IMG/VR virus record: IMGVR_UViG_3300047476_001079
Span: 1 to 45,837 of that record
Direction: 5' to 3' (one strand)
Origin: a virus
Length of the DNA: 45,837 nucleotides
This document shows, one piece after another, positions 4,726 through 35,185 of this stretch; the stretch's first letter is position 1; the number at the start of each line of letters is the position of its first letter. The notes under the pieces were generated by a model. That model saw only the letters and a list, made by a program, of their open reading frames with translations. It was not told where the DNA came from and did no database searches. Position numbers and translations under genes: made by a program.

Positions 4726-4736
4726 AATATTTTCCT

Positions 4737-5162: not shown

Positions 5163-5168
5163 TCATAA

Positions 5169-5177
5169 ATTATACCA
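5169..5177 (-). promoter_or_regulatory. Extended -10 promoter of the dps gene
   Basis: TGGTATAAT on the minus strand. The gap to ATG 5162 is six bases, consistent with leaderless transcription. Confidence 0.75.
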
Positions 5178-5192
5178 CAAATACCAAAAATC

Positions 5193-5274
5193 CCCCATAC
5201 AGGCTATTCAAGCACGAAGGCCACGGTCATAAAATAGGTAACTAATCCATCCTAAGCGTAGTCCTGTATGAGGG
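5193..5274. other. Long inverted repeat in the divergent dps/methyltransferase intergenic region
   Basis: CATACAGG (5196-5203) pairs perfectly with CCTGTATG (5263-5270). The helix is extended by CCC (5193-5195) with GGG (5272-5274) across a single bulged A. It encloses about 59 nt with no open frame. It could be a structured RNA, an operator or a terminator. On the minus strand it is followed by GATTTTTGG, but no minus-strand gene lies upstream to be terminated. Confidence 0.55.
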
Positions 5275-5303
5275 ACACTATTATTATATCAACGTTTTGT
5301 TTA

Positions 5304-5312
5304 TGTTAAAAT
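5304..5312 (+). promoter_or_regulatory. Extended -10 promoter of the methyltransferase operon
   Basis: TGTTAAAAT on the plus strand ends five bases before ATG 5318, again placing the transcription start at the start codon. No RBS or strong -35 is present. Confidence 0.6.
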
Positions 5313-5317
5313 TGAAT

Positions 5318-6022
5318 ATGCCAAAATGGACAAGGCCAGAGTTGCCTTATGATAGCTTTGAAAAGTTTGATAATTTAGACAGTGTCGAGAATAGCCCAGC
5401 TATTGCTCAAGCACAGCTTGACCATGCTAAGATTTTTTCATCGAGAGAGTCTTACTCAAAGCAATTACCAAAAGGAATTAGATACTTAGAACTAGGGGTT
5501 GCTTGGGGCTATTCTGCCAATATGTTTATTAAAGAGACGGAGGCCTATTCCGCAGACCTAATTGATTGGTACAACCAAGATCTGAAGTGCTGGTCTTGGA
5601 GAAAATTTGGTGAATGTCGCTGTGACGGTATGAAGCATGAACTACTGTATACTGCAGAAACACACGAAGATTATGTCAAGGACCTTTTCTCATGGCATCC
5701 CCGAGTTAAAACTTTAAAAGGTGAAGCTAATAAGATTATTAAGAATCTCAAATCTGAATATGACTTTATATATATAGACCTGTCTAACGATAGAATTCTT
5801 ACTAGAGAAATCCTGAAGTCCGCTCAAGATCTGGTTCCTGTAAATGGTATAATTGGTTTAAACGACTACACTATTTTTGACGGGATCATTGAAGAAACTG
5901 CATATGGAACATTTCAGACAGTAAATGAATTTTTAGACAGAAATAAAAATTGGGTTGTGGATGCCCTAGCATTACATCCGCTAGGATTCTACGACATATA
6001 CCTTAGAAAGATTTTCGAATGA
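5318..6022 (+). CDS. Class I SAM-dependent methyltransferase-like protein, 234 aa
   Basis: A Rossmann-fold methyltransferase of the Methyltransf_24 kind. Motif I is YLELGVAWGYSANMF; an acidic strand follows (SADLIDW); later YDFIYIDLSND and GIIGLNDYTIFD match the post-core motifs. I start at ATG 5318 because the -10 box ends five bases upstream; ATG 5303 in frame would add five residues but lies inside the promoter. Its stop overlaps the next start (ATGA). Substrate unknown; a sugar or small molecule is likely for this family. It is cotranscribed with an SGNH-like gene. Confidence 0.72.
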   Translation: MPKWTRPELPYDSFEKFDNLDSVENSPAIAQAQLDHAKIFSSRESYSKQLPKGIRYLELGVAWGYSANMFIKETEAYSADLIDWYNQDLKCWSWRKFGECRCDGMKHELLYTAETHEDYVKDLFSWHPRVKTLKGEANKIIKNLKSEYDFIYIDLSNDRILTREILKSAQDLVPVNGIIGLNDYTIFDGIIEETAYGTFQTVNEFLDRNKNWVVDALALHPLGFYDIYLRKIFE

Positions 6023-6924
6023 AAGATAATGAGTTAATATTTAAAAACATTTCTGGATCGATAGATGATGTATTTTTTAATGATTTCGATAGGACTTGGT
6101 TGAAAAGTGATCCTAATGGGCCAGAGCCAGACAGGGTATATACAAAGTTGCCAATCGAGGTAGCTTATGACGACGGCAACGTGCTTTACGAGTACAATAA
6201 AGACTTTTTTAGATGTGATAATTTTACTGATAAGCACAACGGCCCACACATCTTATTTGCTGGCTGTTCAGAAAGCGAAGGGGTGGGGGCTCCAATAGAT
6301 ACGGTATGGACAAAAGTCCTATTGTCTACGCTGGGCAAAGACTTAGGTTTTTATAGCATTGCAAGAGCTGGTTTTGGATGGCAAAAAGTGATTACAAACT
6401 TTATGGTATACGTAGAAAAGTATGGCGTCCCCTCATATCTATTTATTTTGCTTCCAAACATAGGCAGATTCTTTGAGTGGGATAACGAAAATAATAAGTT
6501 TTTATATGTTCAAAGATATCCAAATAATTCAGATCCCGAAAAGAGGCAAACTGGTGGCATTGAAATGCCAACAGAAAACTTTAAAGAAGAGGTATTGACA
6601 AAACAAGAACATCGTAGATCATTTGTAGATTTTGCTATTAGCTGGAAGTTATTTGAAAAATATTGTGAGGCTATAGGTACTAAAATGATTTGGTCATCCT
6701 GGGATTATGAAGAAAATAAGAACTATGAGATATCGAAGGTGTCTAAAAACTATATCCCATTGTCACAGGAGGGCTTGTTTGAGTTTATAAAATCTAAAAG
6801 GCCAGATGGCAAAATGGATAAATTTGATATCTCTAGAAGAGATGGGCATGGTGGAATTCTGGTAAATGAATACTGGGCAATGTCATTTAAAGCAGAGTTT
6901 GATAAAAGAGGTTGGTCATGCTAA
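6019..6924 (+). CDS. SGNH hydrolase-like protein, 301 aa
   Basis: Has the block I nucleophile context of SGNH esterases/acetyltransferases, HILFAGCSESEG, with candidate Ser84, and an Asp/His pair near the C-terminus (RRDGHGG) that could complete a triad. The middle (ARAGFGWQKVITNFM, FILLPNIGRFFEW) matches the oxyanion-hole Gly and Asn regions. It is paralogous to the minus-strand protein at 12425-13252 (HILFSGCSVTYG, KHPG). Such enzymes add or remove acyl groups on glycans. It overlaps the methyltransferase by 4 nt. Confidence 0.7.
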   Translation: MKDNELIFKNISGSIDDVFFNDFDRTWLKSDPNGPEPDRVYTKLPIEVAYDDGNVLYEYNKDFFRCDNFTDKHNGPHILFAGCSESEGVGAPIDTVWTKVLLSTLGKDLGFYSIARAGFGWQKVITNFMVYVEKYGVPSYLFILLPNIGRFFEWDNENNKFLYVQRYPNNSDPEKRQTGGIEMPTENFKEEVLTKQEHRRSFVDFAISWKLFEKYCEAIGTKMIWSSWDYEENKNYEISKVSKNYIPLSQEGLFEFIKSKRPDGKMDKFDISRRDGHGGILVNEYWAMSFKAEFDKRGWSC

Positions 6925-6998
6925 AGAAGTTGGTTGTTTGGTATAGATTTAAAAAAATAAAAAAGCAGCTTAAAAAGAAAAAGAACTTTATATATTAG
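6918..6998 (+). CDS. Tiny Lys-rich peptide, 26 aa (uncertain)
   Basis: ATG 6918 overlaps the end of the SGNH-like gene and is preceded by AAGAGG at good spacing. The peptide starts MLKKLVVWYRFKK and is almost entirely Lys, aromatic and hydrophobic residues. It could be a small membrane-active or RNA-binding peptide, or a chance frame in A-rich DNA. Confidence 0.35.
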   Translation: MLKKLVVWYRFKKIKKQLKKKKNFIY

Positions 6999-7041
6999 TA
7001 GGGTAGTTTATACTCATACCCAGGAGTCCATGACTAATAAA

Positions 7042-7458
7042 TTACTTGATAGCAATCTTCTTAGGCTTCTTTTCTTCTGGAACATTCTTGTATAGATCAA
7101 TATACAGAATGCCATCCAGCATACTTGCACGATCTACCTCAAAATACTCTGGTAGATTAAATGAGCGAGTAAACTTGCGAGCTGCAATACCCTTGTGGAT
7201 ATAGTTTGCCCCCTCGTCCTCCTGACGCTCACCCTTGATTGTTAGCACATCCTTCTCTACTGAGATATCAATGCCCCCACGATTAAATCCAGCAACAGCA
7301 AACTCAAGAACATAGTGTTCGTCTGAGATTTTGTTGATGTTATATGGTGGGTAAGTGGCCTTTACTGGCTCTGCGAATACCTTCTCAAATTCCTGAGCAA
7401 GGCTTCCGAATGGGAAAAGCAGGTCTCTTCCTACATGTGGTGTACGTGTGTATACCAT
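7042..7458 (-). CDS. Hsp20/alpha-crystallin small heat shock protein, 138 aa
   Basis: An ATP-independent holdase that keeps unfolding proteins soluble. The alpha-crystallin domain spans about residues 37-128: YPPYNINKISDEHYVLEFAVAGF, IDISVEKDVLTIKGER, FTRSFNLPEYFEVD, then LDGILYIDLYKNVPEE with the C-terminal KKIAIK anchor (IxI-type). The N-terminal arm carries LFPFGSLAQEFEKVF. RBS AAGGAG precedes ATG 7458. It is monocistronic, driven by an extended -10 at 7514-7522. Small heat shock proteins are common in cyanophages; here it complements GroES and Dps. Confidence 0.94.
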   Translation of the reverse strand: MVYTRTPHVGRDLLFPFGSLAQEFEKVFAEPVKATYPPYNINKISDEHYVLEFAVAGFNRGGIDISVEKDVLTIKGERQEDEGANYIHKGIAARKFTRSFNLPEYFEVDRASMLDGILYIDLYKNVPEEKKPKKIAIK

Positions 7459-7513
7459 GTTATCATCTCCTTATATTAAGCGAGTTAATTGCCCCCGTTT
7501 GGCAGGCATATAT

Positions 7514-7546
7514 ATTATACCAAGGAAATTCCAATTATGCTATACT
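7514..7546. promoter_or_regulatory. Divergent extended -10 promoters around a GGAAATTCC palindrome
   Basis: Minus strand: TGGTATAAT (7514-7522) for hsp20. Plus strand: TGCTATACT (7538-7546) for the oxygenase gene. Between them GGAAATTCC (7524-7532) is a nine-base palindrome around a central base and could be an operator shared by both promoters. Neither promoter has a clear -35 box. Confidence 0.6.
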
Positions 7547-7568
7547 TTTTGTTAAGAAGGATGGATTA

Positions 7569-8279
7569 ATGGATAGCCAAAAACTACAAAATCATGCTAA
7601 TAATGTTACGGAAAGCCGTAAAGGAAATAAGTTTAGCTATGAGTCACCAATTCCAGGTGTTCATATTTATAGCAATGTCTGGCCAAACTCTTTAGAGTGG
7701 TTTGAAAAGGTAGACGGAGACCAATACTGGGAAGATAACCCAGCTCCTGGGAATAAGAAGTGGATTCGGGAAGATTATCTAGACGATCTAGTTGGAAAGA
7801 AAAGTCGTACATGCTGGATATGGCACGACCAAGAGGTACAGGACAATCTAGAAGAAGTCGTAGATTCTTATTTGTGGCACTGGGATCTAGATCCACACAG
7901 CCGTGAGTCTCTTAGGATAACTAGATATGAACCTAACGGAGAATTTTTTGGAATGCACCCAGATGACTCTTTTGCTACCCCCAGAACTACATCTCTAGTC
8001 TATTACCCGAATGATGACTATGAGGGTGGTGAGCTTGAGTTTATTCATTTTGGTGTAAAGATTAAGCCAAAGGCTGGGCAGTTATTTCTTTTCCCTGCAG
8101 GATATAGCTATGAACACAAAATTTATCCAGTCACTGGTGGTGGATATAGAAGAACAATGGTAACCTTTTTTAATCAGATGAGCAATCAAGAAATTCAAAA
8201 CAGACACAAAGCTATTAGCCAGAATAGCTTTTACAAGGCTGATTTAAAATATGTATTTGCTTCAAACTTTGGTCAATAA
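7569..8279 (+). CDS. Fe(II)/2-oxoglutarate-dependent oxygenase, prolyl-4-hydroxylase type, 236 aa
   Basis: A double-stranded beta-helix dioxygenase that couples 2-oxoglutarate decarboxylation to hydroxylation of a substrate. The metal triad reads His130-Pro-Asp132 (GMHPDDSF) and His183 (YEHKIYPV), with Arg194 for 2-oxoglutarate (YRRTMVTFF). The P4H-family signature NDDYEGGELEF follows the first strand. The RBS AAGAAGGA fits ATG 7569; the frame stays open further upstream only by chance, antisense to hsp20. It is a single plus-strand gene with its own promoter and a terminator. Substrate unknown; protein proline or a small molecule. Confidence 0.88.
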   Translation: MDSQKLQNHANNVTESRKGNKFSYESPIPGVHIYSNVWPNSLEWFEKVDGDQYWEDNPAPGNKKWIREDYLDDLVGKKSRTCWIWHDQEVQDNLEEVVDSYLWHWDLDPHSRESLRITRYEPNGEFFGMHPDDSFATPRTTSLVYYPNDDYEGGELEFIHFGVKIKPKAGQLFLFPAGYSYEHKIYPVTGGGYRRTMVTFFNQMSNQEIQNRHKAISQNSFYKADLKYVFASNFGQ

Positions 8280-12424: not shown

Positions 12425-13252
12425 CTAGATAGCATTATTAATTATCTGCTTTATGAACTTAAAATAAGCATAGTGGTAGGCGGTACCTGGATGCTTTGCC
12501 TGGTCCCTTGCGTAAATAGAAAACTCTTCTTTGTCTGGGTTAAGTTCTAGGTACTCTACCATTGTTGCAGCAAGCCAGCCCTGGTCTATTTTAAAGAATG
12601 TTGGGAAATCAGGGCTACCGAATAGATCTTCGGTCTTCATGTCCCAGCTAAATGAATATAGCTCTATGTTGTGGCTTTTGCAATAAAGCTCTAGTACTTT
12701 ATATGACTGAAATACTGCTAGCTCAAGCTTAGCCTTTAGCAATTCTGTCTCACTGTCTAGTGGCATATTCTTCTTATTGTCAAATTTTGGCCTGTCAAAT
12801 ATGAAGTTAGTACTGCCTCCAGGCATTGGCTGCATAGATCTATATGGATCTGGCAGATTGAGCACAATCGTATTTGGATTTCCATAAATAGAGCAGTACT
12901 TTATTATTTCAAAAACCATGTTTGAAATGTTATTGCCCTCCATGGCAAGATTAAAATACCCAGAAGTGTCTTGCAGAGTTTGCCAGATTTGACGGGTCCA
13001 GGTTTCTTCTAAAAGAAGTCCAGTACCATAAGTTACAGAACAACCAGAAAAAAGTATATGCTTTTTACTACCATGATCCTTAGAGAACTCGTCGGATCTA
13101 TATAGTTTTAGGTTTAACTCTTTATCTGGATCCATCCAATCAAATTTTTTATTAGGGTCTAGGATTTTTTCATAAGATGGATATAAGGTGGCGATGTCGT
13201 GACAAAAAGGAGAAAACTGAACTAACGGTATTGATTCCATTTGGTGAGCCAT
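12425..13252 (-). CDS. SGNH hydrolase-like protein, 275 aa
   Basis: Has HILFSGCSVTYGTG with candidate nucleophile Ser72, the Gly/Asn oxyanion region (NLAMEGNNISNMV), and a C-terminal Asp-x-x-Lys-His (RDQAKHPG) that could supply the Asp-His pair. It is paralogous to the plus-strand protein at 6019-6924. It overlaps the dehydratase-like gene stop/start (ATGG at 13252), so it is the last gene of the sugar-modification run. Likely an acyl-transfer or esterase function on glycans (inference). Confidence 0.7.
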   Translation of the reverse strand: MAHQMESIPLVQFSPFCHDIATLYPSYEKILDPNKKFDWMDPDKELNLKLYRSDEFSKDHGSKKHILFSGCSVTYGTGLLLEETWTRQIWQTLQDTSGYFNLAMEGNNISNMVFEIIKYCSIYGNPNTIVLNLPDPYRSMQPMPGGSTNFIFDRPKFDNKKNMPLDSETELLKAKLELAVFQSYKVLELYCKSHNIELYSFSWDMKTEDLFGSPDFPTFFKIDQGWLAATMVEYLELNPDKEEFSIYARDQAKHPGTAYHYAYFKFIKQIINNAI

Positions 13253-14256
13253 TATTCTGTCACCCCTGGGTTATCAATATACCATTTAATAATATTCGGT
13301 AATTCTTCATTTAGGTTGTATGGGGCAACCCATCCAGATTCTAAAAGCTTAGAATTGTTTAATCCATATCTAGAGTCATACCCTGGTCTAACTGTTGAAG
13401 AATCTACAAGCTTGTACTTAATATTTTTGCCCATGATAGTTGCAATTATTTCTGCCCATTCTAGGTTTGAGTATTCGGCATCCCCACCAACATTAAATTT
13501 ATGTGGCTTCTCGCTATCAGATGGTAGAGCCATTGGCAAACTCAAAACATGTAGCAATGCGGATGCCTGATTACCAGCATGTAGCCAATAACGCATACCA
13601 ACTTTGCCATTATCATATGTATGAATGTCCAATTCCTGATCATTAATAATTTTGTTAATTACCATTGGCGTAAACTTCTCAGCATTCTGAGCCTCACCCA
13701 CCAAATTCATAATATTGATGATTGACACTGGAACACTGTAAGTTCTCCAGTAAGCAAAGATTATATCTTCTTGTGCTGCCTTAGAGGCACTGTATGGATT
13801 GCTTGGAAGATGTGTATCCCACTCTAAAAATTTATGCTGGTCGTATGGGCCAAAAACTTCATCTGTTGACACGTGAAGAACTTTTTCTGGCCTGTATTCT
13901 CTTGCCCAGTCAAGAACGTTGCAAATTACTTGGACATTATTGATGATAAAGTTTGCTGGGTCAGCGATGCTCCTATCCACATGGGATTCGCTGGCTAAGT
14001 TAATTAAGTAATCAATCTTTCCAAACCTAGCTGCCATTTCCCTAGAAATAGGCACAGATAGGTCGCACGAGATCAGGGATATTCTTGCAAACTTAGAATC
14101 ATCATTGCTTGTGGCAAATCTAATTCTTGCTGGCAATTCCGAATGACTCTTTAATGTTAAAGCGACAATCTCCCAATTGGTAGTGTCCAGTATTCTCTTC
14201 ATGACATGGGCAGCAACAAAGCCATCTCCGCCAGTTATTAAAACTCTCTTTGTCAT
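13252..14256 (-). CDS. dTDP-glucose 4,6-dehydratase-like NAD-dependent SDR, 334 aa
   Basis: An extended short-chain dehydrogenase with the NAD-binding ITGGDGFVAAH, LASESHVDRSI, the catalytic STDEVFG region and YSASKA (Tyr-x3-Lys). This set is characteristic of RmlB-type dehydratases that make 4-keto-6-deoxy sugars from dTDP-glucose. Length 334 is typical. The nucleotide-sugar-making enzyme (RmlA) is not visible, so host dTDP-glucose would be needed. It is translationally coupled to the glycosyltransferase upstream by a 4-nt overlap. Epimerase activity cannot be excluded. Confidence 0.88.
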   Translation of the reverse strand: MTKRVLITGGDGFVAAHVMKRILDTTNWEIVALTLKSHSELPARIRFATSNDDSKFARISLISCDLSVPISREMAARFGKIDYLINLASESHVDRSIADPANFIINNVQVICNVLDWAREYRPEKVLHVSTDEVFGPYDQHKFLEWDTHLPSNPYSASKAAQEDIIFAYWRTYSVPVSIINIMNLVGEAQNAEKFTPMVINKIINDQELDIHTYDNGKVGMRYWLHAGNQASALLHVLSLPMALPSDSEKPHKFNVGGDAEYSNLEWAEIIATIMGKNIKYKLVDSSTVRPGYDSRYGLNNSKLLESGWVAPYNLNEELPNIIKWYIDNPGVTE

Positions 14257-15203
14257 TTTAAACCGAATATTTCTAGGAACTTGTCTCTGGCATTTTTTAG
14301 ATCTTCCCCACCCTCTTCATAGAAGTCCTCAATTGATCGTCTCTGGTTCTTTACCTTAAAAATACTAGAGTTATCAAGCAAAACAAATTTTTCAATTTCT
14401 AGCTTTTCCTCTGGTGTTTCAAATATTGCTTGGTACCTCTTGCCTTCAGCCAAAGTATATCTATCTTTTTTATATATAGCTCTTGCCGTTGGGCTATCGT
14501 TGTGCCCAAGATGTGCAAACTCTGGCAAACGATAGTAGTCCCATCCAGACAAAAACGTTGTTACTGCAATCGTATACTCTTCTGAGTATGAGCGTATTGT
14601 TTGGTGAAATCCAACGTCCGACAGATAGTCTTTATTTGTAAAGAAAAAATGGCTGCAGGAGTATAAGGTTTTTTGGTATCTTTCTCCATCCCATGGGGCA
14701 TGAATATATCCAGGGATAACGGTTCTCTCTATGCTTTTTGGCTCAAATCCCCAGTTTACCTTCCAGCAAGTCTTAAGAGTTATGGTGTTATCTTCATAAG
14801 TATCGGCTGGCTGCGGAGACAAAGATGTGGACATAATAGTTCTTTGTCCGTGTCTCCGAACAAGGTCCTCATAATCATTTATAATCTTTGCATCCCAATT
14901 TTTAGAGAATGTCATGTGGGAGTCTAGCATTAGGAAATAGTCTTGGCCAGAGTGCTGCTCTGCCATTTCTCTTCTTATCCAATAAACTCCTGGTCTTTTG
15001 CTAACCTCATAGAATAAAAATTTGAAGTTTGGATTGTTTATATATGGAGAGATATCTGGAAGCTCAGCATACTGCATGCCAATACAAAAAAACAATCTAT
15101 CTGGATTTAAAGCGTTATCTAGTGCACCCTTAATTGTTGGCAATAACAGCGGATCTTCATATGCTGGAATAGTTATAAAAATTGTTTTATCTTTATTTAC
15201 CAT
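14253..15203 (-). CDS. GlcNAc-transferase-like GT-A glycosyltransferase (Skp1 GnT1 family), 316 aa
   Basis: A GT-A fold enzyme starting TIFITIPAYEDPLLLPTI, with the metal motif in FLMLDSHMTFSKNWD (DSHM, 94-97). That Asp-x-His context and the nearby PGVYWIRREMAE match PF11397, the family that includes Skp1 HyPro-GlcNAc transferase. Downstream HFFFTNKDYL and SEEYTIAVTTFLSGWDYY fit the acceptor side and catalytic Glu region. Sugar donor and acceptor are unproven. It overlaps the dehydratase gene by 4 nt and follows the carbamoyltransferase. A second, divergent copy lies at 17886-18749. Confidence 0.8.
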   Translation of the reverse strand: MVNKDKTIFITIPAYEDPLLLPTIKGALDNALNPDRLFFCIGMQYAELPDISPYINNPNFKFLFYEVSKRPGVYWIRREMAEQHSGQDYFLMLDSHMTFSKNWDAKIINDYEDLVRRHGQRTIMSTSLSPQPADTYEDNTITLKTCWKVNWGFEPKSIERTVIPGYIHAPWDGERYQKTLYSCSHFFFTNKDYLSDVGFHQTIRSYSEEYTIAVTTFLSGWDYYRLPEFAHLGHNDSPTARAIYKKDRYTLAEGKRYQAIFETPEEKLEIEKFVLLDNSSIFKVKNQRRSIEDFYEEGGEDLKNARDKFLEIFGLK

Positions 15204-15205
15204 AA

Positions 15206-16618
15206 TTATCTAATTATATCCTGTCCATACATCTTCTGCCACCTGTTAATGTCTTCTTCGTCATTTAATAATGGCTGACCCTTAATGTTAAGGCTAGTAT
15301 TCAGTAATATTGGCACTCCAGTCTCTTCATAAAACTTTTTTAGTAGTGCGTATAGCCCTGGGTGCTGATTAGCATTTACTGTCTGTACCCTGGAAGTTCC
15401 ATCATAGTGAACAACAGACGGGATAAGCTCTGGCTTTAGGCACTTAGGCGTGTACTGCATATAAGGGCTTGCATAGTGCATGTCAAACCATTCTGAAGCA
15501 TATTCTTCCATAACTACTGGAGCAAATGGTCTAAACTCTTCACGCTTCTTTATCTTATTAACTTTATTCTTTATATCTGGGTCACGTGGGTCAGCTAGAA
15601 TACTCCTATTTCCTAGGGCTCTTGGACCAAATTCTGCTCTTCCAGTGGCTACTGCTGCAATCTTTTTTGTCATAATTTCATTAAAGATTTTATCTACTGG
15701 GTATTCTCCGCCGAGATCGTGGCCTAGATATGGACCTTGCCAATTTAGGTGCTTGCCATGCATAGCTGCAGCAGCTCCTAGAGAGCTTCCTGCGTCTCCT
15801 GGATTAGGCATAATCCATACATCTGGGAATATGTCCCACAGCATAGTATTAGCTTTACTGTTAAGTGCACAGCCACCCATGAACACTAGGTTTGAACTAT
15901 CTAATTCTTGTCTGGCTATGTACATAAAATCCCACAGCCTATCTTCGTATACCCTTTGCACAGCAGCGGCTATATGGAATTTATCATTTGCTGTAATGTC
16001 CTGTCCCCAGTCATAGATACCTTTGTGAAAGTTATATTTCTGCTTGTAAACTGCTGGGAAATACTCCTCAACCTTTTCATAGTATAGGTCTGGGTCACCA
16101 TAAGCAGCCATGCCCATCATGATGTACTCTTCTTCGTTAGCCTTGAGACCAATGAGATCTGTAAATGCCGAATAGAATAGGCCATAGCTAAATGGATAAT
16201 TCCATTTTTTATGCAGAGTTATTTTGTCACCATCACCGATCCAAACAGAACTTGTTGTGAACTCACCGATAGCATCAAGGACTACAATTACAGCATCTCT
16301 AAATGGACTGGTATAGTACCCTGCTGCTGCATGAGAATGGTGATGCCTAAAAGACTGGTCGTATTTGACATTAGGCTTCCAATCTGCGTACCCACCCAGC
16401 AACAACCTAAGCTTCTTGAGGTAAGGCTTTTCGTAATAGGCTATTTTGTCTGGGCTTCCGTATTTGACAAGATCATCCAAAAGATTACCATTAGTGTACC
16501 AGTCATTCTTGCTTTTGCTATATCTTTCTGCATGACCAGCAAACAAGATATTTCCATTATCGTCAATTAAAGACATGGCTGCGTCATGAGATGTCTCATT
16601 AAAGCCTAGAATCTTCAT
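15206..16618 (-). CDS. Carbamoyltransferase, NodU/CmcH/TobZ family, 470 aa
   Basis: Transfers a carbamoyl group from carbamoyl phosphate via carbamoyl-AMP to a hydroxyl of a sugar or antibiotic. Motifs: ILGFNETSHDAAMSL, the metal site HHHSHAAAG (92-100), FMGGCALNSKAN and, in the C-terminal domain, GRAEFGPRALGNRSILADPR, with NTSLNIKGQPLL near the end. It is shorter than bacterial members (about 550-600) but has both domains. It overlaps the upstream oxygenase gene by 4 nt. Likely decorates a glycan made by the neighbouring transferases. Confidence 0.93.
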   Translation of the reverse strand: MKILGFNETSHDAAMSLIDDNGNILFAGHAERYSKSKNDWYTNGNLLDDLVKYGSPDKIAYYEKPYLKKLRLLLGGYADWKPNVKYDQSFRHHHSHAAAGYYTSPFRDAVIVVLDAIGEFTTSSVWIGDGDKITLHKKWNYPFSYGLFYSAFTDLIGLKANEEEYIMMGMAAYGDPDLYYEKVEEYFPAVYKQKYNFHKGIYDWGQDITANDKFHIAAAVQRVYEDRLWDFMYIARQELDSSNLVFMGGCALNSKANTMLWDIFPDVWIMPNPGDAGSSLGAAAAMHGKHLNWQGPYLGHDLGGEYPVDKIFNEIMTKKIAAVATGRAEFGPRALGNRSILADPRDPDIKNKVNKIKKREEFRPFAPVVMEEYASEWFDMHYASPYMQYTPKCLKPELIPSVVHYDGTSRVQTVNANQHPGLYALLKKFYEETGVPILLNTSLNIKGQPLLNDEEDINRWQKMYGQDIIR

Positions 16619-17262
16619 TCGTTCCCATTCGAATTAATAGGGTTATACATATTGTGGTACCAGTGTGGCATCGAGTACCTAAATCCTTCTGTAATTGGAT
16701 AAACTTCATGGACATACAAGAAGTTTGATGGGAAAAATATAATGCTTCCAGCTTCTGGCTTAATTTTGACTCCAGACTGCCTGAACTCGATCTCTCCGCC
16801 CAGATAGTCATCATTCAAATACATAACGGTAGAAAGCACTCTAGAGCTAATACCCTGATCTTGATGTGCTGGTAGATGGCCACCAACACCATACTTCAAA
16901 AGATGTATACTCTGTTCTCTGGTCTTAATATTTTTGCCAGCAAATGGATAAAGCTGCTGCGAATAATGAGCAAATGCCCTATCTAATGAGCCATAAAGAA
17001 CATTGGCAATATGCTTCATTTCTTTTGCATAGTAGTCTGTGTCTGAAATATCTTTTGCCTCTGGGAAAAACTTTTGATAATTAAATATCATCTCTCCATA
17101 TGACCAAGGAGTCCAGTCTCTTACCACAGTTCGTGCATCATTCACATGCTCTTTTGCCAAGAATCTTACATTAAGTTCTTCTATCGCATCTATTAAAAGT
17201 TGTGGTTCCTGAATAACATTCTTATAGTAAACAAGACCAAGATCCAATACCCTATAATCCAT
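16615..17262 (-). CDS. Fe(II)/2-oxoglutarate oxygenase, prolyl-4-hydroxylase type, 215 aa
   Basis: Metal triad His133-Gln-Asp135 (LPAHQDQG), His185 (YVHEVYPI), with Arg195 (FRYSMPHW) for 2-oxoglutarate. The P4H signature LNDDYLGGEIEFRQSG is very close to the plus-strand protein at 7569-8279, so these two are paralogs. The gene sits between a second oxygenase and the carbamoyltransferase and overlaps the latter by 4 nt. The substrate may be a protein proline, a glycan precursor or a nucleotide; context favours a role in the modification island. Confidence 0.9.
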   Translation of the reverse strand: MDYRVLDLGLVYYKNVIQEPQLLIDAIEELNVRFLAKEHVNDARTVVRDWTPWSYGEMIFNYQKFFPEAKDISDTDYYAKEMKHIANVLYGSLDRAFAHYSQQLYPFAGKNIKTREQSIHLLKYGVGGHLPAHQDQGISSRVLSTVMYLNDDYLGGEIEFRQSGVKIKPEAGSIIFFPSNFLYVHEVYPITEGFRYSMPHWYHNMYNPINSNGNE

Positions 17263-17263
17263 C

Positions 17264-17863
17264 TTATTTACTCACATTCTTATTTTCTCTTGCTGCCCAG
17301 ACAGCAGTTTCCTCCTGTGAGTGGAAGTCTGGATCAGCGTGGTTTGGCAAGCTTGTGTGCATATATAATGCTGTATTTCTCATGCCAGAAGTTACAGTAG
17401 TTATTCCATGAATATATTCAGACCCAGCTGAGGGGAAAAACACAGCTGAATATTGTCTTGGCTTATACTCAAAATCCTGATTTGGGAAATAGATAACTCC
17501 ACCTTCGTATTCGTCTGGGCTATTTAAATAGATAATTGTACTAAACTCTATAAATGGCTCTGGTCCTTGAGCATCTATGTGAAGGCTGCCTTTTGTTCCT
17601 GGAGCCCAGACAGACCCAAATGCTTTAAATACATAAATAGGGTTAACGAAGCCATTAACCTCTTTGTGAACATCATTAGCTTTTCTACCATACTTAACTA
17701 AAAGATCCATAACACGCTTATTGTATGGGAAGGCTGTGCCACCAAAACGCTCCTTATAGTATTCTGGATAAGGGTTTATCTCAGATGGGCGAGACTGTTC
17801 CTCAATTAGGATTGCTGCATCCTCTGGGTCAATAAAATTATCAATTATGTGAATTCTGTGCAT
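17264..17863 (-). CDS. Fe(II)/2-oxoglutarate oxygenase, prolyl-4-hydroxylase type, 199 aa
   Basis: Residues His95-Ile-Asp97 (LHIDAQG), His152 (EYIHGITTV) and Arg162 (GMRNTALY) give the complete 2-oxoglutarate oxygenase site. EYEGGVIYFPNQD corresponds to the P4H-type Gly-Gly strand. It is more divergent from the two other P4H-type copies than those are from each other. RBS AGGAGAAG precedes ATG 17863, and it is followed after one base by the next oxygenase, so two oxygenases are made together. Confidence 0.88.
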   Translation of the reverse strand: MHRIHIIDNFIDPEDAAILIEEQSRPSEINPYPEYYKERFGGTAFPYNKRVMDLLVKYGRKANDVHKEVNGFVNPIYVFKAFGSVWAPGTKGSLHIDAQGPEPFIEFSTIIYLNSPDEYEGGVIYFPNQDFEYKPRQYSAVFFPSAGSEYIHGITTVTSGMRNTALYMHTSLPNHADPDFHSQEETAVWAARENKNVSK

Positions 17864-17885
17864 TTTCTTCTCCTAGTAAATTATA

Positions 17886-18749
17886 TCAATAAATGGCTTT
17901 TGTGCCAGTTAAGAATCTTCTTGCATCTATCTTGTGCATCTTAAGGTCATATGGGTCGTAAAGTACGTCGTCTGCATTGTATGGTAAACGATGAATCTTA
18001 GAGATATCTATTTGATGAAAGCTTAAAAAGCTTTTTACGGCACTCTCTGTAATCTTGTACCTGGAAACATTTTTACAATTTAGCAAATCAATTACTACGT
18101 TATAGTTATGCTCTAAAGAGAATGTGTGATACATATTTTCAACGGATCTTTCTTTAGAGTCTGTATACATTTGAGACGGGATAGACATTATTGAGTACCC
18201 TGCTGACAGGAAAGCAATAGACAGATACTCATTTTCTCCATGGTACTTCAAAAAGTCTGGCATAACAATTTCTGCAAAAGATTCTGTTCTTCCAAATATA
18301 AAGTTTCGATCAACTATTTGTGTTAGAGAATAAGAGTCAGATGGTTCATAATCCACTCCAATTGAAAAAAGATCCTTTTGCTTTACGATAGCATTTCCAG
18401 AACCAGAAAAAATAGTTTTTGAGGTACCCAATCTCGAGATTAATTCTAGATCCCAACCATGACTTAGCTCTATGTCTGGACTAATTATGCAGACATAATC
18501 TGCTTCTCCAGAAGTATCAAATACTTTTGTAGCTCTTCTATAGGCTGGCCCCTTCATGCTGTCCCAAATTCTATGCTCGTAGTGGCAGTTAGGAATTTCA
18601 GAAAATTCTTTTGAATGCACAATTGGGTGCTGATCAAACACGTGAATAAAGTTATCTGATACTGTTACATTTTTTAGATGGATGGCAGCATTGTGTAAAT
18701 TTTTATCTTTATAACCAACTAAAATTATAGAAATTGTGGCACTAGTCAT
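17886..18749 (-). CDS. Divergent GT-A glycosyltransferase-like protein, 287 aa
   Basis: Shares layout with the GnT1-like gene at 14253: ISIILVGYKDKNLHNAA at the start, GPAYRRATKVFD in place of the PGVYWIRREMAE region, and CIISPDIELSHGWDLELI where DSHM-x6-WD is expected. Here the metal motif is SPD rather than DSHM. YHGENEYLSIAFLSAGY matches the SEEYTIAV region with its catalytic acid. It overlaps the upstream gene by 8 nt. It may use a different donor or be a regulatory partner; acting as a glycosyltransferase is probable rather than certain. Confidence 0.66.
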   Translation of the reverse strand: MTSATISIILVGYKDKNLHNAAIHLKNVTVSDNFIHVFDQHPIVHSKEFSEIPNCHYEHRIWDSMKGPAYRRATKVFDTSGEADYVCIISPDIELSHGWDLELISRLGTSKTIFSGSGNAIVKQKDLFSIGVDYEPSDSYSLTQIVDRNFIFGRTESFAEIVMPDFLKYHGENEYLSIAFLSAGYSIMSIPSQMYTDSKERSVENMYHTFSLEHNYNVVIDLLNCKNVSRYKITESAVKSFLSFHQIDISKIHRLPYNADDVLYDPYDLKMHKIDARRFLTGTKAIY

Positions 18750-19515
18750 CGTGGTTTACCTCTTTTTCTTTTTTGCCGAAAATTCCAAAAAACTTTTTTC
18801 TCCAAGCAACTTTTTTGTAATACCCATAAAGCATTGATCTTCTATTCTCTGCTCTAAACCAATGCTCATCCATAGACTCTGGAGAAGGATCTACCTTTAG
18901 TTCCCAACTATCTCTTTTAAAAGGAATCATCTGAAATAGTGGAGTTCCTTTTGGAATTACTCCACGAAAATTACGCTTCAAAAAGAATGCAGTAAAAACT
19001 GGAAGGCCCCAGATATCTGAATCGACTATTCCTGATAGGGTGTAGAATGGAAGCTCATGTCTATTCATAGGATGTGTTATTAGGACAGAATACCCTGGCG
19101 GAGTTTCATAATACCAAGTCATTCTCCAGCCATAGTGTATTGGATGACAATTGTCTGGCAGGGGAACATCGAATATTGGCCTTGTATCGACTAGCATGGT
19201 ATCACCCTTCCAAGAAAGAATTGGGTGCCCCAGCTCATCCATATCAACGTATAAATCATCTTCTAAGCAATAGTAGTATCCAGCAGTAAGTGCGTCAAAA
19301 TATGGCATACACATCTTTGTAGATACCTGGGCTCCGTCAGTGCCAATGTGGTTTTGAGGATTTAAAGTTATATCACTATTAGAGACGTCGTGGCGAGCTA
19401 ATGACCTATACCATTCTGGAACATGCTTAACTGCTGGTTCAGCATTTAGATAAGGAGTTTCACCATTTTTCAAATAAGATGGAATAAAGGTGATATTGAG
19501 TGGCTGGTCATTCAC
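18742..19515 (-). CDS. DUF6065-like protein, copy 1, 257 aa
   Basis: Belongs to a family I recognise only as DUF6065-like. Shared marks are PEWYRSLARHD near residue 33, KMCMPYFDALTAGYY, the WYYETPPGYSVLITHPMNR segment, SGIVDSDIWG and GTPLFQMIPFKRDSW near the end. The same marks occur in the adjacent gene at 19512. The compact beta-rich fold with a conserved ending resembles cupin-like proteins, but no catalytic site is evident to me. The C-terminal tail is strongly basic (KKVAWRKKFFGIFGKK). It overlaps both neighbours by a few bases. Confidence 0.7.
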   Translation of the reverse strand: MNDQPLNITFIPSYLKNGETPYLNAEPAVKHVPEWYRSLARHDVSNSDITLNPQNHIGTDGAQVSTKMCMPYFDALTAGYYYCLEDDLYVDMDELGHPILSWKGDTMLVDTRPIFDVPLPDNCHPIHYGWRMTWYYETPPGYSVLITHPMNRHELPFYTLSGIVDSDIWGLPVFTAFFLKRNFRGVIPKGTPLFQMIPFKRDSWELKVDPSPESMDEHWFRAENRRSMLYGYYKKVAWRKKFFGIFGKKEKEVNHDD

Positions 19516-20252
19516 TTATACTCCTTTGGTGATCTAAACTTATTTTTATATCCATTACTAAAAGTGCTTCTAAGATTCATTCTGTGTTTTTTGAGGAAGC
19601 CTTCTGACTCTTGTGGGTCAGCCACTTCCATCTTCCAGTCTTCCCTTCTAAATGGAATGATCTGTACTAGAGGAGTTCCTTGCTTAATTACACCAACAAA
19701 GCCAGCTTGGACCTTAAATGAGAAGTGTCCATCCGATGGATAGCCATCTGTATCAATTATTCCAGTTATTGCTGTTAGTGGAGAAATGTCTCTATTTATT
19801 GGATCAAGGAACAGTGCACTGTATCCTGGTGGAGTAGATGCTATCCAAAATGGCATAATTCTGAGAAGGTCTTGGTGATATACCTCTGCTGGCATTGGAA
19901 GATAGCTATACTGCTTTCTCTCGTGACTTGCGAATAGATCTGCCTTGAATGGAGACAATGGTGCTGGTATTTGATAGGTAAGCTTTTCTGGATCTGAGGC
20001 ATCAATAAAAATGTCAGATGGTGCAACTAAAATATATCCAGCAGTAATGGCATCAAAGATTGGTAAGCATTTCTTTACAGTATTGGTAGGCTGTCCAAAT
20101 TTAGATAATGACTCTCCGTTATCCATAGTTCCTGGCTGCTGCTTGTACCATTCTGGAATTGCTTTAGATGCTGGCTTTGGCTCTGGTGTAAAGGTTATGG
20201 TCTTATCGTTTAGGGGATAAAACTTAATTATTTGATGGCTCTTCTTTTTCAT
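19512..20252 (-). CDS. DUF6065-like protein, copy 2, 246 aa
   Basis: Same architecture as copy 1: PEWYKQQPGTMDN, KKCLPIFDAITAGYI, STPPGYSALFLDPINRD, TGIIDTDGYP and GTPLVQIIPFRREDW. RBS AAGGAA precedes ATG 20252, and it overlaps copy 1 by 4 nt. The two copies clearly arose by duplication. Function unknown; their tight linkage with oxygenases and glycosyltransferases suggests a role in the same pathway. Confidence 0.7.
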   Translation of the reverse strand: MKKKSHQIIKFYPLNDKTITFTPEPKPASKAIPEWYKQQPGTMDNGESLSKFGQPTNTVKKCLPIFDAITAGYILVAPSDIFIDASDPEKLTYQIPAPLSPFKADLFASHERKQYSYLPMPAEVYHQDLLRIMPFWIASTPPGYSALFLDPINRDISPLTAITGIIDTDGYPSDGHFSFKVQAGFVGVIKQGTPLVQIIPFRREDWKMEVADPQESEGFLKKHRMNLRSTFSNGYKNKFRSPKEYK

Positions 20253-20910
20253 AAAATTCCTTAATCCTATCTATCATTATATCAGTTGCAGAAAAAACCA
20301 TGTCAAACATTGGGGACTGTCTTTTTATTTTGCCAAATTTTTCCGTTACCATATGATCACCTAGCCTTTTAAAATGAAATGGAACAAAGAACGGATGCAG
20401 ATATTCTAAACTTTTTTCTATAGGATGACAATTCATAGCTTGTGGATATACATAAAAAGGGCTATCCTCTACAGGCTCTATACTTACATAAGCTGACTCA
20501 TCTAATATCCAAGGAACATAGAACTTATAAGCTCCTGGAAAGCATCCATTGGGAGTATCGTACCCAGATTGCGAGGTATTGTAGTATTGACGCATCCAGG
20601 GCCTATCCACGTTGTAGAATGACCCATCATCCCTTTCTAATAAAAATATTTCTGCATGGTTTCCCTGGCGAAGCCTAACTATATTATCTTTAATACTTAC
20701 TAGCTCTGGTGATGGGACAAGCCTTTCAACATACCTATTGATTGGTTTAATGATAGAGTCTTTATGTCTGCCAATCAATATGTTCTGATAAGATAGCCAA
20801 TTTCTTGGAATATTGGATTTCATAGAGATTTCAATAAAGTTAGGATCTTCTGTTTCATACCAAATATTAAAGTTATTAGCTTGCTGTGTACTTATTGCTG
20901 GCTTTTCCAT
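20224..20910 (-). CDS. Divergent third DUF6065-like protein, 228 aa
   Basis: Starts at ATG 20910, with AGAAGGGG just before it; the in-frame TTG at 20934 would lie inside tRNA-Thr. The pattern is loose relative to copies 1 and 2: IPRNWLSYQNILIG for the PEWY part, FYVPWILDESAYVSIEPVED for the PPGYS part, and FFVPFHFKRLGD for the IPFKR part. The SGI-DTD motif is missing. It may have lost or changed the shared function. It overlaps copy 2 by 29 nt and is the gene nearest the tRNA array. Confidence 0.6.
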   Translation of the reverse strand: MEKPAISTQQANNFNIWYETEDPNFIEISMKSNIPRNWLSYQNILIGRHKDSIIKPINRYVERLVPSPELVSIKDNIVRLRQGNHAEIFLLERDDGSFYNVDRPWMRQYYNTSQSGYDTPNGCFPGAYKFYVPWILDESAYVSIEPVEDSPFYVYPQAMNCHPIEKSLEYLHPFFVPFHFKRLGDHMVTEKFGKIKRQSPMFDMVFSATDIMIDRIKEFYEKEEPSNN

Positions 20911-20925
20911 AAATCCCCTTCTGAG

Positions 20926-20998
20926 AGCCTCCAACAGGACTTGAACCCGTCACCTACGCATTACAAGTGCGTCGCTCTACCAGATGAGCTATGGAGGC
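20926..20998 (-). tRNA. tRNA-Thr (TGT)
   Basis: Acceptor GCCTCCA/TGGAGGC, D arm GCTC/GAGC, anticodon stem ACGCA/TGCGT with loop CTTGTAA (anticodon TGT), T-loop TTCAAGT, discriminator T. CCA is not encoded. Confidence 0.93.
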
Positions 20999-21000
20999 AT

Positions 21001-21075
21001 AAAAAGTGGATGTCCAGCATCACTGGGTTTCTTACGAAGAGTTTAGTTGCAACATACTCCACTTCACCACTTTTT
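21001..21075. other. tRNA-sized foldable spacer between tRNA-Asp and tRNA-Thr
   Basis: A 75-nt segment is closed by a perfect 9-bp stem (AAAAAGTGG/CCACTTTTT). It contains internal hairpins (CCAG/CTGG, TCTT/AAGA, and the palindrome GTTGCAAC). It fills almost exactly the gap between the two tRNA genes but lacks a T-loop (TTCRA). It looks like a degenerate tRNA or another structured RNA. No open frame is present. Confidence 0.45.
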
Positions 21076-21076
21076 G

Positions 21077-21150
21077 CGACTCCAATGGGACTTGAACCCA
21101 CGACCCCCACCGTGACAGGGTGGTGCTCTAACCAACTGAGCTATGGAGCC
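21077..21150 (-). tRNA. tRNA-Asp (GTC)
   Basis: Acceptor GGCTCCA/TGGAGTC, anticodon stem CCACC/GGTGG with loop CTGTCAC (anticodon GTC), T-loop TTCAAGT, discriminator G. No encoded CCA. Confidence 0.93.
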
Positions 21151-21168
21151 AGAACCCCCCATTACTGG

Positions 21169-21249
21169 GAGGGTGAGTAGGTGGATTGCCTTTTACCACC
21201 AGTGCCTAGTCAATACGGTTCTGTAAGATCCGCTTTTGAGCACACCCTC
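21169..21249. other. Second tRNA-sized foldable spacer
   Basis: An 81-nt segment closed by GAGGGTG/CACCCTC (7 bp, the length of an acceptor stem). It has internal hairpins GGTGG/CCACC (11-nt loop) and CGG/CCG (11-nt loop). No T-loop consensus and no gene. It lies in the 208-bp stretch between tRNA-Asp and the degenerate tRNA, which otherwise holds nothing I can name. Confidence 0.4.
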
Positions 21250-21358
21250 AGTTTAGCTTGCTAAGCTTGGACGCTAGTCCCCAAGTTGCCTTATTCCCCC
21301 CATTTGACTCTGGGAATTATTCGGCCATACTCCACAGAAACCGTCGTTGCTGTGTTTG

Positions 21359-21426
21359 CGAACAGAAGAGGAGTCGAACCTCTAGCTTGCTGATCAGTGC
21401 CGTGTTGCCTATTACACCATCTGTTC
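21359..21426 (-). pseudogene. Degenerate tRNA with a broken anticodon arm (tRNA-Gln-like)
   Basis: The acceptor (GAACAGA/TCTGTTC), D arm (GTGT/ACAC) and T arm (AGAGG/CCTCT with TTCGACT) are intact. Only 17 nt remain between D and T arms, and they cannot form a five-base-pair anticodon stem with a seven-base loop. The total is 68 nt including discriminator G, about five short. The D-arm context resembles tRNA-Gln. Probably a deletion derivative, though an unusual functional RNA is possible. Confidence 0.6.
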
Positions 21427-21430
21427 AAGT

Positions 21431-21600
21431 GGGATATCAGATTAATCAGATCCATATCCCTGAGTCGTTTCCTAAGACGGGTGACCAACCCCGAACCTAT
21501 ATCGTGAGATTACCTACACGCCAGAGTATCTACTGCCTGGACAGCAACAAGTGTTGAATTTTTTACGTGCACTTGTACACGTATAGGTGATTAGCCTATA
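21431..21600. other. Noncoding spacer with hairpins between degenerate tRNA and tRNA-Gly
   Basis: No convincing gene. Hairpins seen: GGGATAT/ATATCCC (21431-21460, 7 bp, 16-nt loop), ACGTG/CACGT (21565-21582) and TATAGG/CCTATA (21582-21600, 7-nt loop), the last directly beside the 3' end of tRNA-Gly. Confidence 0.4.
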
Positions 21601-21601
21601 G

Positions 21602-21673
21602 AGGGGATAGAGGTAATCGAAACCTCATCTAAACTTTGGAAGAGTCTCATTCTAGCCGTTGAACTATATCCCC
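21602..21673 (-). tRNA. tRNA-Gly (TCC)
   Basis: Acceptor GGGGATA/TATCCCC, anticodon loop CTTCCAA (anticodon TCC), T arm GAGGT/ACCTC with TTCGATT, discriminator T. No encoded CCA. Its 5' 27 nt are shared with the end of the HNH gene. Confidence 0.92.
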
Positions 21674-22078
21674 GAAATTAGACTTAGACCAACCACCTCT
21701 AGTGACTGTTCTAATTCTATGACAATTTGCACAAACAGTTTCACACTTATCTAATTCATTCATAAGGGTTTCTAAAGTAAGTACCCCAACCATTCTAGAG
21801 ACATTAAAGCTTTTATCTCTTAAATGATCTTGCTCTAAAACCCTAATGTCCGAATTACCACAGTCTATGCAAGACTTTGTGGATAACCATTTATAATAGT
21901 CATCACGATAAGTGTTTTTGTTTTTTGCAGCTTTATCAATATACTTTTGTTTATTATCCTGATAGTGTTGTTTACGATATATAGAGTGGCACGTTTTACA
22001 CACTGATTGAGGCTTACCATGCTTTTTATTGAACATATCAAAATCTTTTTCAATACCGCATTTACTACAAGTTTTCAT
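21647..22078 (-). CDS. HNH endonuclease-like protein with zinc knuckles, 143 aa, leaderless
   Basis: N-terminal CSKCGIEKDFDMFNKK and CKTCH zinc ligands, a lysine-rich linker, then the HNH core: CIDCGNSD, LEQDHLRDK, CETVCANCHRIRT. It is related to the 81-residue protein at 2717. I start at ATG 22078, because the extended -10 TGCTATACT ends six bases before it (leaderless); ATG 22096 lies in the promoter. The last nine codons read into the 5' part of tRNA-Gly. Such HNH genes often behave as homing or mobile endonucleases; insertion within a tRNA array fits that. Confidence 0.85.
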   Translation of the reverse strand: MKTCSKCGIEKDFDMFNKKHGKPQSVCKTCHSIYRKQHYQDNKQKYIDKAAKNKNTYRDDYYKWLSTKSCIDCGNSDIRVLEQDHLRDKSFNVSRMVGVLTLETLMNELDKCETVCANCHRIRTVTRGGWSKSNFGDIVQRLE

Positions 22079-22084
22079 AAACTT

Positions 22085-22124
22085 AGTATAGCACATTTCT
22101 TTCCAAACTTATATTAATTTGGAA
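22085..22124 (-). promoter_or_regulatory. Extended -10 promoter with operator-like inverted repeat for the HNH gene
   Basis: TGCTATACT (22085-22093) leads to a leaderless start at 22078. Immediately upstream, TTCCAAA/TTTGGAA (22101-22124, 7-bp arms, 10-nt centre) covers the -35 region, a classic operator position. Confidence 0.6.
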
Positions 22125-22193
22125 GGATCTCTATTTAATTGTGTTGCTTGCTTTTATCCTATACCCGAGGAGTGGTGCAAGCGGAACCATTAG

Positions 22194-22266
22194 CTGGGAC
22201 AGCAGGGATCGAACCTGCGACATTTCGATTAACAGTCGAACGCTCTGCCAGCTGAGCTATGTCCCA
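22194..22266 (-). tRNA. tRNA-Asn (GTT)
   Basis: Acceptor TGGGACA/TGTCCCA, anticodon stem TTCGA/TCGAA with loop CTGTTAA (anticodon GTT), T-loop TTCGATC, discriminator G. No encoded CCA. Confidence 0.93.
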
Positions 22267-34861: not shown

Positions 34862-35185
34862 CTAGCGAGTAATGTACTTAAGTGCTGATACTAGTGCATT
34901 GATTGATTCTGCAGCAGTATAGTACAAGTTCTTCTTCGCTCTGTCTCCTTTATCTACGTTTGCCATCCAGGTTGCCTTAAAAGACATCTTAGCTGCAATT
35001 GCTTGCAATCTAACAATTTCAATTGTTGCTACCTGTAATGGAATATCTGGTTTAATAATAATCTTAGCAATGAATGTAAGTGCATCGGTTAGCTCTTTGT
35101 CATCCATGTAGTCTGCGATATCAGCAAGGCCGTTTATCATGTCTAGTGTTGTTGGTGCTGGTGCTCCCAAATCATTATTCTGCAT
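34862..35185 (-). CDS. Hypothetical helical protein, 107 aa
   Basis: A helical protein (TLDMINGLADIADYMDDKEL, later SINALVSALKYITR), with no signal. I chose ATG 35185, preceded by GCAGGA at seven bases; in-frame ATG 35200 is possible. It overlaps the oxygenase gene by 11 nt. Not recognised; conserved position in the recombination run is the only hint. Confidence 0.65.
   Translation of the reverse strand: MQNNDLGAPAPTTLDMINGLADIADYMDDKELTDALTFIAKIIIKPDIPLQVATIEIVRLQAIAAKMSFKATWMANVDKGDRAKKNLYYTAAESINALVSALKYITR

What the first reader, a model, noticed from the sequence alone, without database searches (positions are those of the whole stretch)
12425..20934. Candidate phage hydroxylate-then-glycosylate modification island
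Seen: two prolyl-4-hydroxylase-type oxygenases (16615, 17264), a GT-A enzyme with the DSHM-x6-WD motif of the Skp1 GnT1 family (14253) and a divergent paralog (17886), a NodU-type carbamoyltransferase, a dTDP-sugar dehydratase, an SGNH protein and three DUF6065-like proteins, all on one strand with short overlaps. Known: in eukaryotic Skp1 a prolyl hydroxylase makes hydroxyproline and a GnT1 (PF11397) enzyme adds GlcNAc to it. Inference: the phage may carry an analogous protein-modification route, or a tailored glycan path. Proline-rich phage proteins in the window (QPEP repeat protein at 24523, AAKP-tailed protein at 8335) are possible targets. I know of no described phage system of this composition.
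Basis: partly seen in the sequence, partly recalled or inferred. Interest (0 to 1): 0.78.

Follow-up and report, generated by a model that had tools for sequence, protein, structure and literature searches.

The report
Phage protein hydroxylation and glycosylation island
A virus of (probably lake) actinobacteria carries a conserved ten-gene cluster of oxygen-using hydroxylases and sugar-attaching enzymes that probably decorates the virus's own proteins, perhaps its collagen-like tail fibres, much as animals modify collagen; this is inferred from sequence and has not been tested.

Summary
Ten same-strand, nearly contiguous genes (12425-20910) encode an SGNH protein, an RmlB-like dehydratase, a PF11397 (GT60-type) glycosyltransferase GT1, a NodU-like carbamoyltransferase, two PF13640 oxygenases, a GT-like protein GT2, two DUF6065 proteins and a probable third. 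It is no chance gathering: 28 of 28 uncut loci from related IMG/VR contigs keep the order DUF6065c-b-a, GT2, 2OG_B; 25 have 2OG_A, 23 the carbamoyltransferase, 19 a GT1-like gene. GT1 keeps DXH and its predicted fold is closest to polypeptide GalNAc-transferases. Both oxygenases keep HxD...H...R, and their best solved relatives are protein prolyl hydroxylases. GT2 is homologous to GT1 but lost DXH in 28 of 28 sequences. DUF6065 probably has a dUTPase-type fold. DNA hypermodification is disfavoured. Most likely this is a cytoplasmic system for hydroxylating and glycosylating phage proteins; that hydroxyproline is the sugar acceptor is unproven. I found no described system of this composition.

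The parts
20224..20910 (-). DUF6065c: probable divergent DUF6065-like protein
   Evidence: No Pfam hit; hhalign to DUF6065a 20%, E 0.001; always first of the conserved core; start moved from TTG 20934, which lies in a tRNA
19512..20252 (-). DUF6065b, probable dUTPase-type fold
   Evidence: phrog_7084 E 1.3e-43; AlphaFold2 model pLDDT 84 matches dUTPases and dCTP deaminases
18742..19515 (-). DUF6065a, the most conserved protein of the core
   Evidence: phrog_7084 E 1.2e-29; 63-83% identity to homologs
17886..18749 (-). GT2: DXH-less GT-A-like homolog of GT1
   Evidence: hhalign to GT1 98.7%; DXH replaced in 28/28
17264..17863 (-). 2OG_B: 2OG-Fe(II) oxygenase, prolyl-3-hydroxylase-like
   Evidence: PF13640; H95, D97, H152, R162 invariant in 20/20; profile best in PDB: prolyl 3-hydroxylase 1, E 1.5e-8
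16615..17262 (-). 2OG_A: 2OG-Fe(II) oxygenase, prolyl-4-hydroxylase-like
   Evidence: PF13640 E 2.4e-16; H133, D135, H185, R195 invariant in 20/20; profile best in PDB: bacterial P4H 3itq, E 1.3e-7
15206..16618 (-). NodU-like O-carbamoyltransferase
   Evidence: PF16861 E 3.9e-54 and PF02543 E 3e-41; phrog_1601
14253..15203 (-). GT1: PF11397 (GT60-type) glycosyltransferase, DXH at residues 94-96
   Evidence: PF11397 over cut-off; DXH 20/20; fold nearest polypeptide GalNAc-transferases
13252..14256 (-). RmlB-like nucleotide-sugar 4,6-dehydratase
   Evidence: PF01370, PF16363; TIGR01181 205 bits, below its cut-off of 365
12425..13252 (-). SGNH-type putative acyltransferase or esterase
   Evidence: GCS serine and C-terminal His conserved in 29/30 homologs; weak GDSL structure match, E 0.011

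Best explanation
A phage-encoded cytoplasmic protein-modification system. The RmlB-like enzyme (with a C-methyltransferase beside it in relatives) makes an activated deoxysugar. One or both prolyl-hydroxylase-type oxygenases hydroxylate residues, most likely prolines, of phage proteins; collagen-like tail-fibre proteins are the best candidates. GT1 attaches a sugar to protein hydroxyls, probably the new hydroxyproline or nearby Ser/Thr. The carbamoyltransferase carbamoylates the glycan and the SGNH protein acylates or deacylates it. GT2 and the DUF6065 proteins form a near-obligate core with 2OG_B, perhaps presenting the substrate. Shown: gene families, intact catalytic motifs in GT1 and both oxygenases, co-conservation, and collagen-like tail proteins in relatives. 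Predicted: the folds of GT1 and DUF6065. Inferred: protein as acceptor, proline as the hydroxylated residue, tail fibre as target, and every reaction and its order.
For: GT1 belongs to PF11397, whose characterised GT60 members Gnt1 and the T. cruzi enzyme glycosylate polypeptides, Gnt1 on hydroxyproline (PMC6939170); its model is nearest polypeptide GalNAc-transferases, E 3e-11. Profile of 2OG_A best matches the B. anthracis-type P4H, E 1.3e-7, an enzyme reported to hydroxylate X- and Y-position prolines of collagen-like peptides (PMC8968730); 2OG_B best matches collagen prolyl 3-hydroxylase 1, E 1.5e-8. Catalytic residues invariant. Gene order conserved 28/28. Collagen-like proteins in 12 of 13 contigs of at least 110 kb and 0 of 9 other phage records; they lie in a tail-fibre region. 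In G005 a PF11397 gene (E 2.6e-39) lies in that region, and in G007/G009 a PF13640 oxygenase and an SGNH gene border it. No long hydrophobic segment in the ten proteins, which fits a cytoplasmic acceptor.
Against: No virion genes lie in the window, so its own collagen-like protein is not seen. Contigs are one related lineage, so collagen co-occurrence may be shared ancestry; the 9 control records are few and unmatched. PDB is rich in protein hydroxylases, which biases the oxygenase matches. 9 of 28 loci lack a GT1-like gene nearby, and two large relatives have no PF11397 match at all. Collagen-like repeats have Pro at only 16% of Y positions (37% of X). GT2 and DUF6065 have no known role in protein glycosylation.
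Confidence: 0.45

Rival explanations
1. Phage protein glycosylation without hydroxyproline: GT1 glycosylates Ser/Thr or extends a glycan on virion proteins, and the oxygenases hydroxylate the sugar or act elsewhere.
For: GT1 fold is nearest Ser/Thr polypeptide GalNAc-transferases; Che8 and related mycobacteriophages are reported to have glycans on capsid proteins (PMC11256854); distant PF11397 genes sit near Gly-Thr-Ser repeat proteins in 7 of 42 loci.
Against: Two intact prolyl-hydroxylase-like enzymes are inside the conserved block, which this reading leaves unexplained.
Confidence: 0.25
2. Host-surface glycan modification, for example of wall polymers, to block superinfection.
For: Sugar-tailoring genes are common in phages; suggested for glycosyltransferases of the isolated 'Ca. 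Nanopelagicales' phages (PMC10202952); TarP, a wall teichoic acid transferase, appears among GT1's fold matches from rank 47.
Against: No flippase, lipid-linked transferase or membrane protein in the island; no long hydrophobic segment in any of the ten proteins. Does not explain prolyl-hydroxylase-like enzymes.
Confidence: 0.15
3. DNA hypermodification: the oxygenases hydroxylate bases, then sugar and carbamoyl groups are added.
For: A phage carbamoyltransferase makes 5-carbamoyloxymethylcytosine (PMC8670742); weak Tet_JBP similarity of 2OG_A, E 0.004; DUF6065 probably has a dUTPase-type fold.
Against: No C5 DNA methylase in 13 records, no thymidylate synthase/hydroxymethylase family in 9, Tet_JBP never over cut-off. 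In that paper the DNA-modifying carbamoyltransferases co-occur with thymidylate synthase homologs, while those in unmodified contigs can be flanked by glycosyltransferases.
Confidence: 0.08
4. A small-molecule or nucleotide-sugar pathway serving host takeover, with the oxygenases acting on a metabolite.
For: RmlB, C-methyltransferase and O-carbamoyltransferase occur together in antibiotic sugar pathways (own knowledge); a C-methyltransferase lies beside RmlB in relatives; PF13640 is a broad family.
Against: No scaffold synthase recognised among the window translations or the related loci I read. GT1 is not a natural-product GT-B type.
Confidence: 0.07

Closest known systems
Skp1 hydroxylation-glycosylation (PhyA + Gnt1, GT60/PF11397) of Dictyostelium and Toxoplasma
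   Same: PF11397 transferase with a prolyl-hydroxylase-type oxygenase; cytoplasmic enzymes (PMC6939170)
   Different: Here two oxygenases, a DXH-less second transferase, carbamoyl- and SGNH-type tailoring enzymes, DUF6065 proteins, all on one phage island; no Skp1 target
Mimivirus collagen modification (L230, R699)
   Same: A virus with collagen-like proteins plus hydroxylase and glycosyltransferase genes (PMC9546862)
   Different: Mimivirus modifies lysine (hydroxylysine) with unrelated transferases; here the oxygenases resemble prolyl hydroxylases and the transferase is PF11397
Glycosylated mycobacteriophage virions (Che8 and relatives)
   Same: Actinophages with glycosyltransferases and reported capsid glycans (PMC11256854)
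   Different: No hydroxylases reported there to my knowledge; different gene set
5-hydroxymethylcytosine carbamoyltransferase DNA modification
   Same: NodU-type carbamoyltransferase on phage contigs (PMC8670742)
   Different: That system comes with a thymidylate-synthase-type hydroxymethylase, absent here
B. anthracis prolyl 4-hydroxylase and collagen-like BclA
   Same: Bacterial P4H is the closest solved relative of 2OG_A; collagen-like proteins as possible targets; BclA is also glycosylated (PMC8968730)
   Different: Chromosomal bacterial system, not a phage island

Membership tests
PF11397 / GT60 (GT1, 14253) | Profile match over curated cut-off | tested here: met
   58.5 bits against 21
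PF11397 / GT60 (GT1, 14253) | GT-A fold with DXH metal site | tested here: met
   DXH 20/20; model matches GT-A polypeptide GalNAc-transferases
PF11397 / GT60 (GT1, 14253) | Transfers sugar to protein hydroxyproline or Ser/Thr | not testable with these tools
   needs an enzyme assay
PF11397 / GT60 (GT2, 17886) | Profile match over cut-off and DXH | tested here: not met
   no Pfam hit; DXH lost 28/28; homology to GT1 only
Protein prolyl hydroxylase (2OG_A, 2OG_B) | 2OG-Fe(II) oxygenase fold family and HxD...H...R site | tested here: met
   PF13640; residues invariant 20/20
Protein prolyl hydroxylase (2OG_A, 2OG_B) | Groups with protein rather than small-molecule hydroxylases | tested here: inconclusive
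   best PDB matches are P4H and P3H1, but the library is biased and no reference tree was built
Protein prolyl hydroxylase (2OG_A, 2OG_B) | Hydroxylates peptidyl proline | not testable with these tools
   needs an enzyme assay
DUF6065 (18742, 19512) | Pfam PF19541 cut-off | tested here: not met
   16.8 and 18.2 bits against 26.6; same phrog_7084 as phage relatives
dUTPase superfamily (DUF6065) | dUTPase-type fold | tested here: inconclusive
   model matches are all dUTPase/dCTP deaminase but E > 1e-3 in PDB; viral library agrees; profile comparison above shuffled decoys, though one unrelated family came close
dUTPase superfamily (DUF6065) | Motif-1 Asp of the dUTPase active site | tested here: not met
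   TAGY-x-L in place of AGYDL by eye in alignments
TET/JBP-type or 5hmC-type DNA hypermodification | Tet_JBP oxygenase over cut-off, C5 methylase, or thymidylate-synthase-type hydroxymethylase | tested here: not met
   (records may be incomplete)
NodU carbamoyltransferase (15206) | Both carbamoyltransferase domains | tested here: met
   PF02543 and PF16861; NodU equivalog cut-off itself not met, 154 of 1000 bits
RmlB dTDP-glucose 4,6-dehydratase (13252) | TIGR01181 equivalog cut-off | tested here: not met
   205 of 365 bits; family-level match only
Phage virion glycosylation system | Glycan covalently on virion proteins | not testable with these tools
   needs virion proteomics

The most novel reading that the evidence does not exclude
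A tailed phage with its own hydroxyproline-linked glycosylation machine for collagen-like tail fibres: P4H- and P3H-like oxygenases make hydroxyproline, a GT60-type enzyme glycosylates it, and three dUTPase-fold proteins with a DXH-less transferase act as a dedicated scaffold or heterotrimer that presents the substrate.
Probability: 0.25. Interest if true: 0.88.

Novelty: new variant of a known kind. Interest (0 to 1): 0.68.

Why it matters
If true, it would be the first phage hydroxylate-then-glycosylate route known to me: a bacterial-virus parallel to Skp1 and collagen modification, in a large actinophage lineage whose host-recognition fibres may be decorated this way. It would give DUF6065 a context and a fold. 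Because the reactions need O2 and 2-oxoglutarate, the decoration could depend on host metabolism. It also makes a direct test possible: mass spectrometry of collagen-like phage proteins.

Tried and rejected
GT1 sequence alone against the PDB found nothing. The A5 profile's hits to tandem RecA constructs are summed weak repeats, none significant alone; ignored. DUF6065 in 80 bacterial or archaeal genome loci (mostly Alphaproteobacteria) showed no recurring glycan or oxygenase neighbours, so it gave no functional hint. In halophage HF2 DUF6065 lies near ribonucleotide reductase and baseplate genes: ambiguous. Profile searches of DUF6065 against PDB sequences found nothing. Papers: none mention DUF6065, and none that I found describe a phage P4H + GT60 system. 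The TerL-based scan meant to find island-free relatives was limited by 10 kb flanks. First-reader targets: QPEP (24523) is recognised in only 11 loci and the AAKP protein (8335) in 6 (flanks limit this), and I found no link of either to the island.
Full report
WHAT IS THERE. The window is a 45.8 kb IMG/VR virus record with a WhiB gene at 9367 (PF02467) and eight tRNAs; replication and packaging genes (TerL, Pol III alpha, RecA, DnaB-like helicase, ribonucleotide reductase) were named by reading the translations. WhiB makes an actinobacterial host likely; a 'Ca. Nanopelagicales'-like lake host is inference from WhiB and 40% G+C (PMC10202952). Ten minus-strand genes from 12425 to 20910 form one near-contiguous run.

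FAMILIES. GT1 (14253) matches PF11397 over cut-off, the carbamoyltransferase has both domains, and both oxygenases match PF13640. DUF6065a and b match phrog_7084. GT2 (17886) has no family hit but is homologous to GT1 by profile comparison. DUF6065c is only a probable divergent relative. The RmlB-like and NodU-like enzymes fall below the strict equivalog cut-offs, so their exact substrates are open.

CATALYTIC STATE. GT1 keeps DXH in 20 of 20 aligned relatives. GT2 has lost it in 28 of 28. Both oxygenases keep all four key residues in 20 of 20. The SGNH serine and histidine are kept in 29 of 30.

CONSERVATION. A scan with DUF6065a gave 44 IMG/VR contigs, of which about 23 are distinct at 92% identity. 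In the 28 with enough flank, the order DUF6065c-b-a, GT2, 2OG_B is present in 28, 2OG_A in 25, the carbamoyltransferase in 23, SGNH in 21, GT1-like in 19, RmlB in 9. An independent scan with 2OG_B gave DUF6065 (two to four copies)-GT2-2OG_B in 56 of 60 loci; the other 4 have several oxygenases and a carbamoyltransferase but no DUF6065 or GT2. DUF6065a is the most conserved member, while GT2 and SGNH diverge to about 30% identity. Loci L378 and L384 show a differently arranged cluster with oxygenase genes around two DUF6065 genes and a GT1-like gene. So the association survives rearrangement and is not simple gene-order inertia.

STRUCTURE. DUF6065b was modelled at mean pLDDT 84; all 50 listed PDB matches are dUTPases or dCTP deaminases, although no E-value is below 1e-3, and most named viral matches are dUTPases too. 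Profile comparison with phage dUTPases scored 19.7 against a shuffled-decoy maximum of 5.0, but one unrelated family reached 16.2 against DUF6065, so this is support, not proof. The aligned region holds dUTPase-like motifs, but the motif-1 Asp is gone (read by eye). dUTPases are usually trimers (own knowledge), so three tandem paralogs invite the guess of a heterotrimer. GT1 was modelled at pLDDT 87; its nearest folds are polypeptide GalNAc-transferases.

SUBSTRATE CLUES. 2OG_A is nearest a bacterial collagen-type P4H and 2OG_B nearest prolyl 3-hydroxylase 1. Collagen-like proteins over cut-off occur in 8 of 12 and then 10 of 15 contigs of the lineage, and in 12 of the 13 that are at least 110 kb; none of 9 other phage records has one. 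In four relatives looked at in detail they sit in a tail-fibre region. Their repeats carry Pro at 37% of X and 16% of Y positions. In G005 a strong PF11397 gene lies in that same region; in G007 and G009 a PF13640 oxygenase and an SGNH gene border it. Distant PF11397 genes have Gly-X-Y repeat proteins within the fetched flanks in 7 of 42 loci. These links are contextual and partly share ancestry.

RIVALS. DNA hypermodification lacks its marker genes, and the known DNA carbamoyltransferases keep other company (PMC8670742). Host-surface modification lacks membrane or lipid-carrier genes in the island. Ser/Thr glycosylation without hydroxyproline is the strongest rival and cannot be separated here.

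VERDICT. A real, strongly conserved phage module, most likely for protein modification. Confidence 0.45 in the mechanism; interest 0.68.

Noticed in passing
window 2980-8279 (+): A second small set on the other strand: a sulfotransferase-like protein (by eye), a methyltransferase (PF13578, just below cut-off), a second SGNH protein and a third PF13640 oxygenase.
   Followed up: partly
window 35175-35996, 36043-36609, 38063-38617: Three more possible oxygenase-like proteins without Pfam hits, named by eye; distant homologs lie beside the tail-fibre region of relatives G007/G009.
   Followed up: partly
L378:869-9748: A phage contig with a dense cluster of oxygenase genes (seven 2OG_A-like, one 2OG_B-like), two DUF6065 genes and one GT1-like gene.
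   Followed up: partly
L054 (halophage HF2), gene HrrHF2_475: A single DUF6065 homolog is widespread in haloarchaeal tailed viruses; in HF2 it lies near ribonucleotide reductase and baseplate genes.
   Followed up: no
L005:10862-12076 and equivalents: A sugar C-methyltransferase (PF08421, PF13489, PF08484) beside the RmlB-like gene in several relatives.
   Followed up: partly
L347, L337, L363 and similar: Phages with distant PF11397 genes carry long Gly-Thr-Ser type repeat proteins a few genes away.
   Followed up: partly
window 20925-22266: tRNA genes (Thr, Asp, Gly, Asn) lie directly upstream of the island; the annotated-by-rule TTG start of DUF6065c runs into tRNA-Thr.
   Followed up: yes
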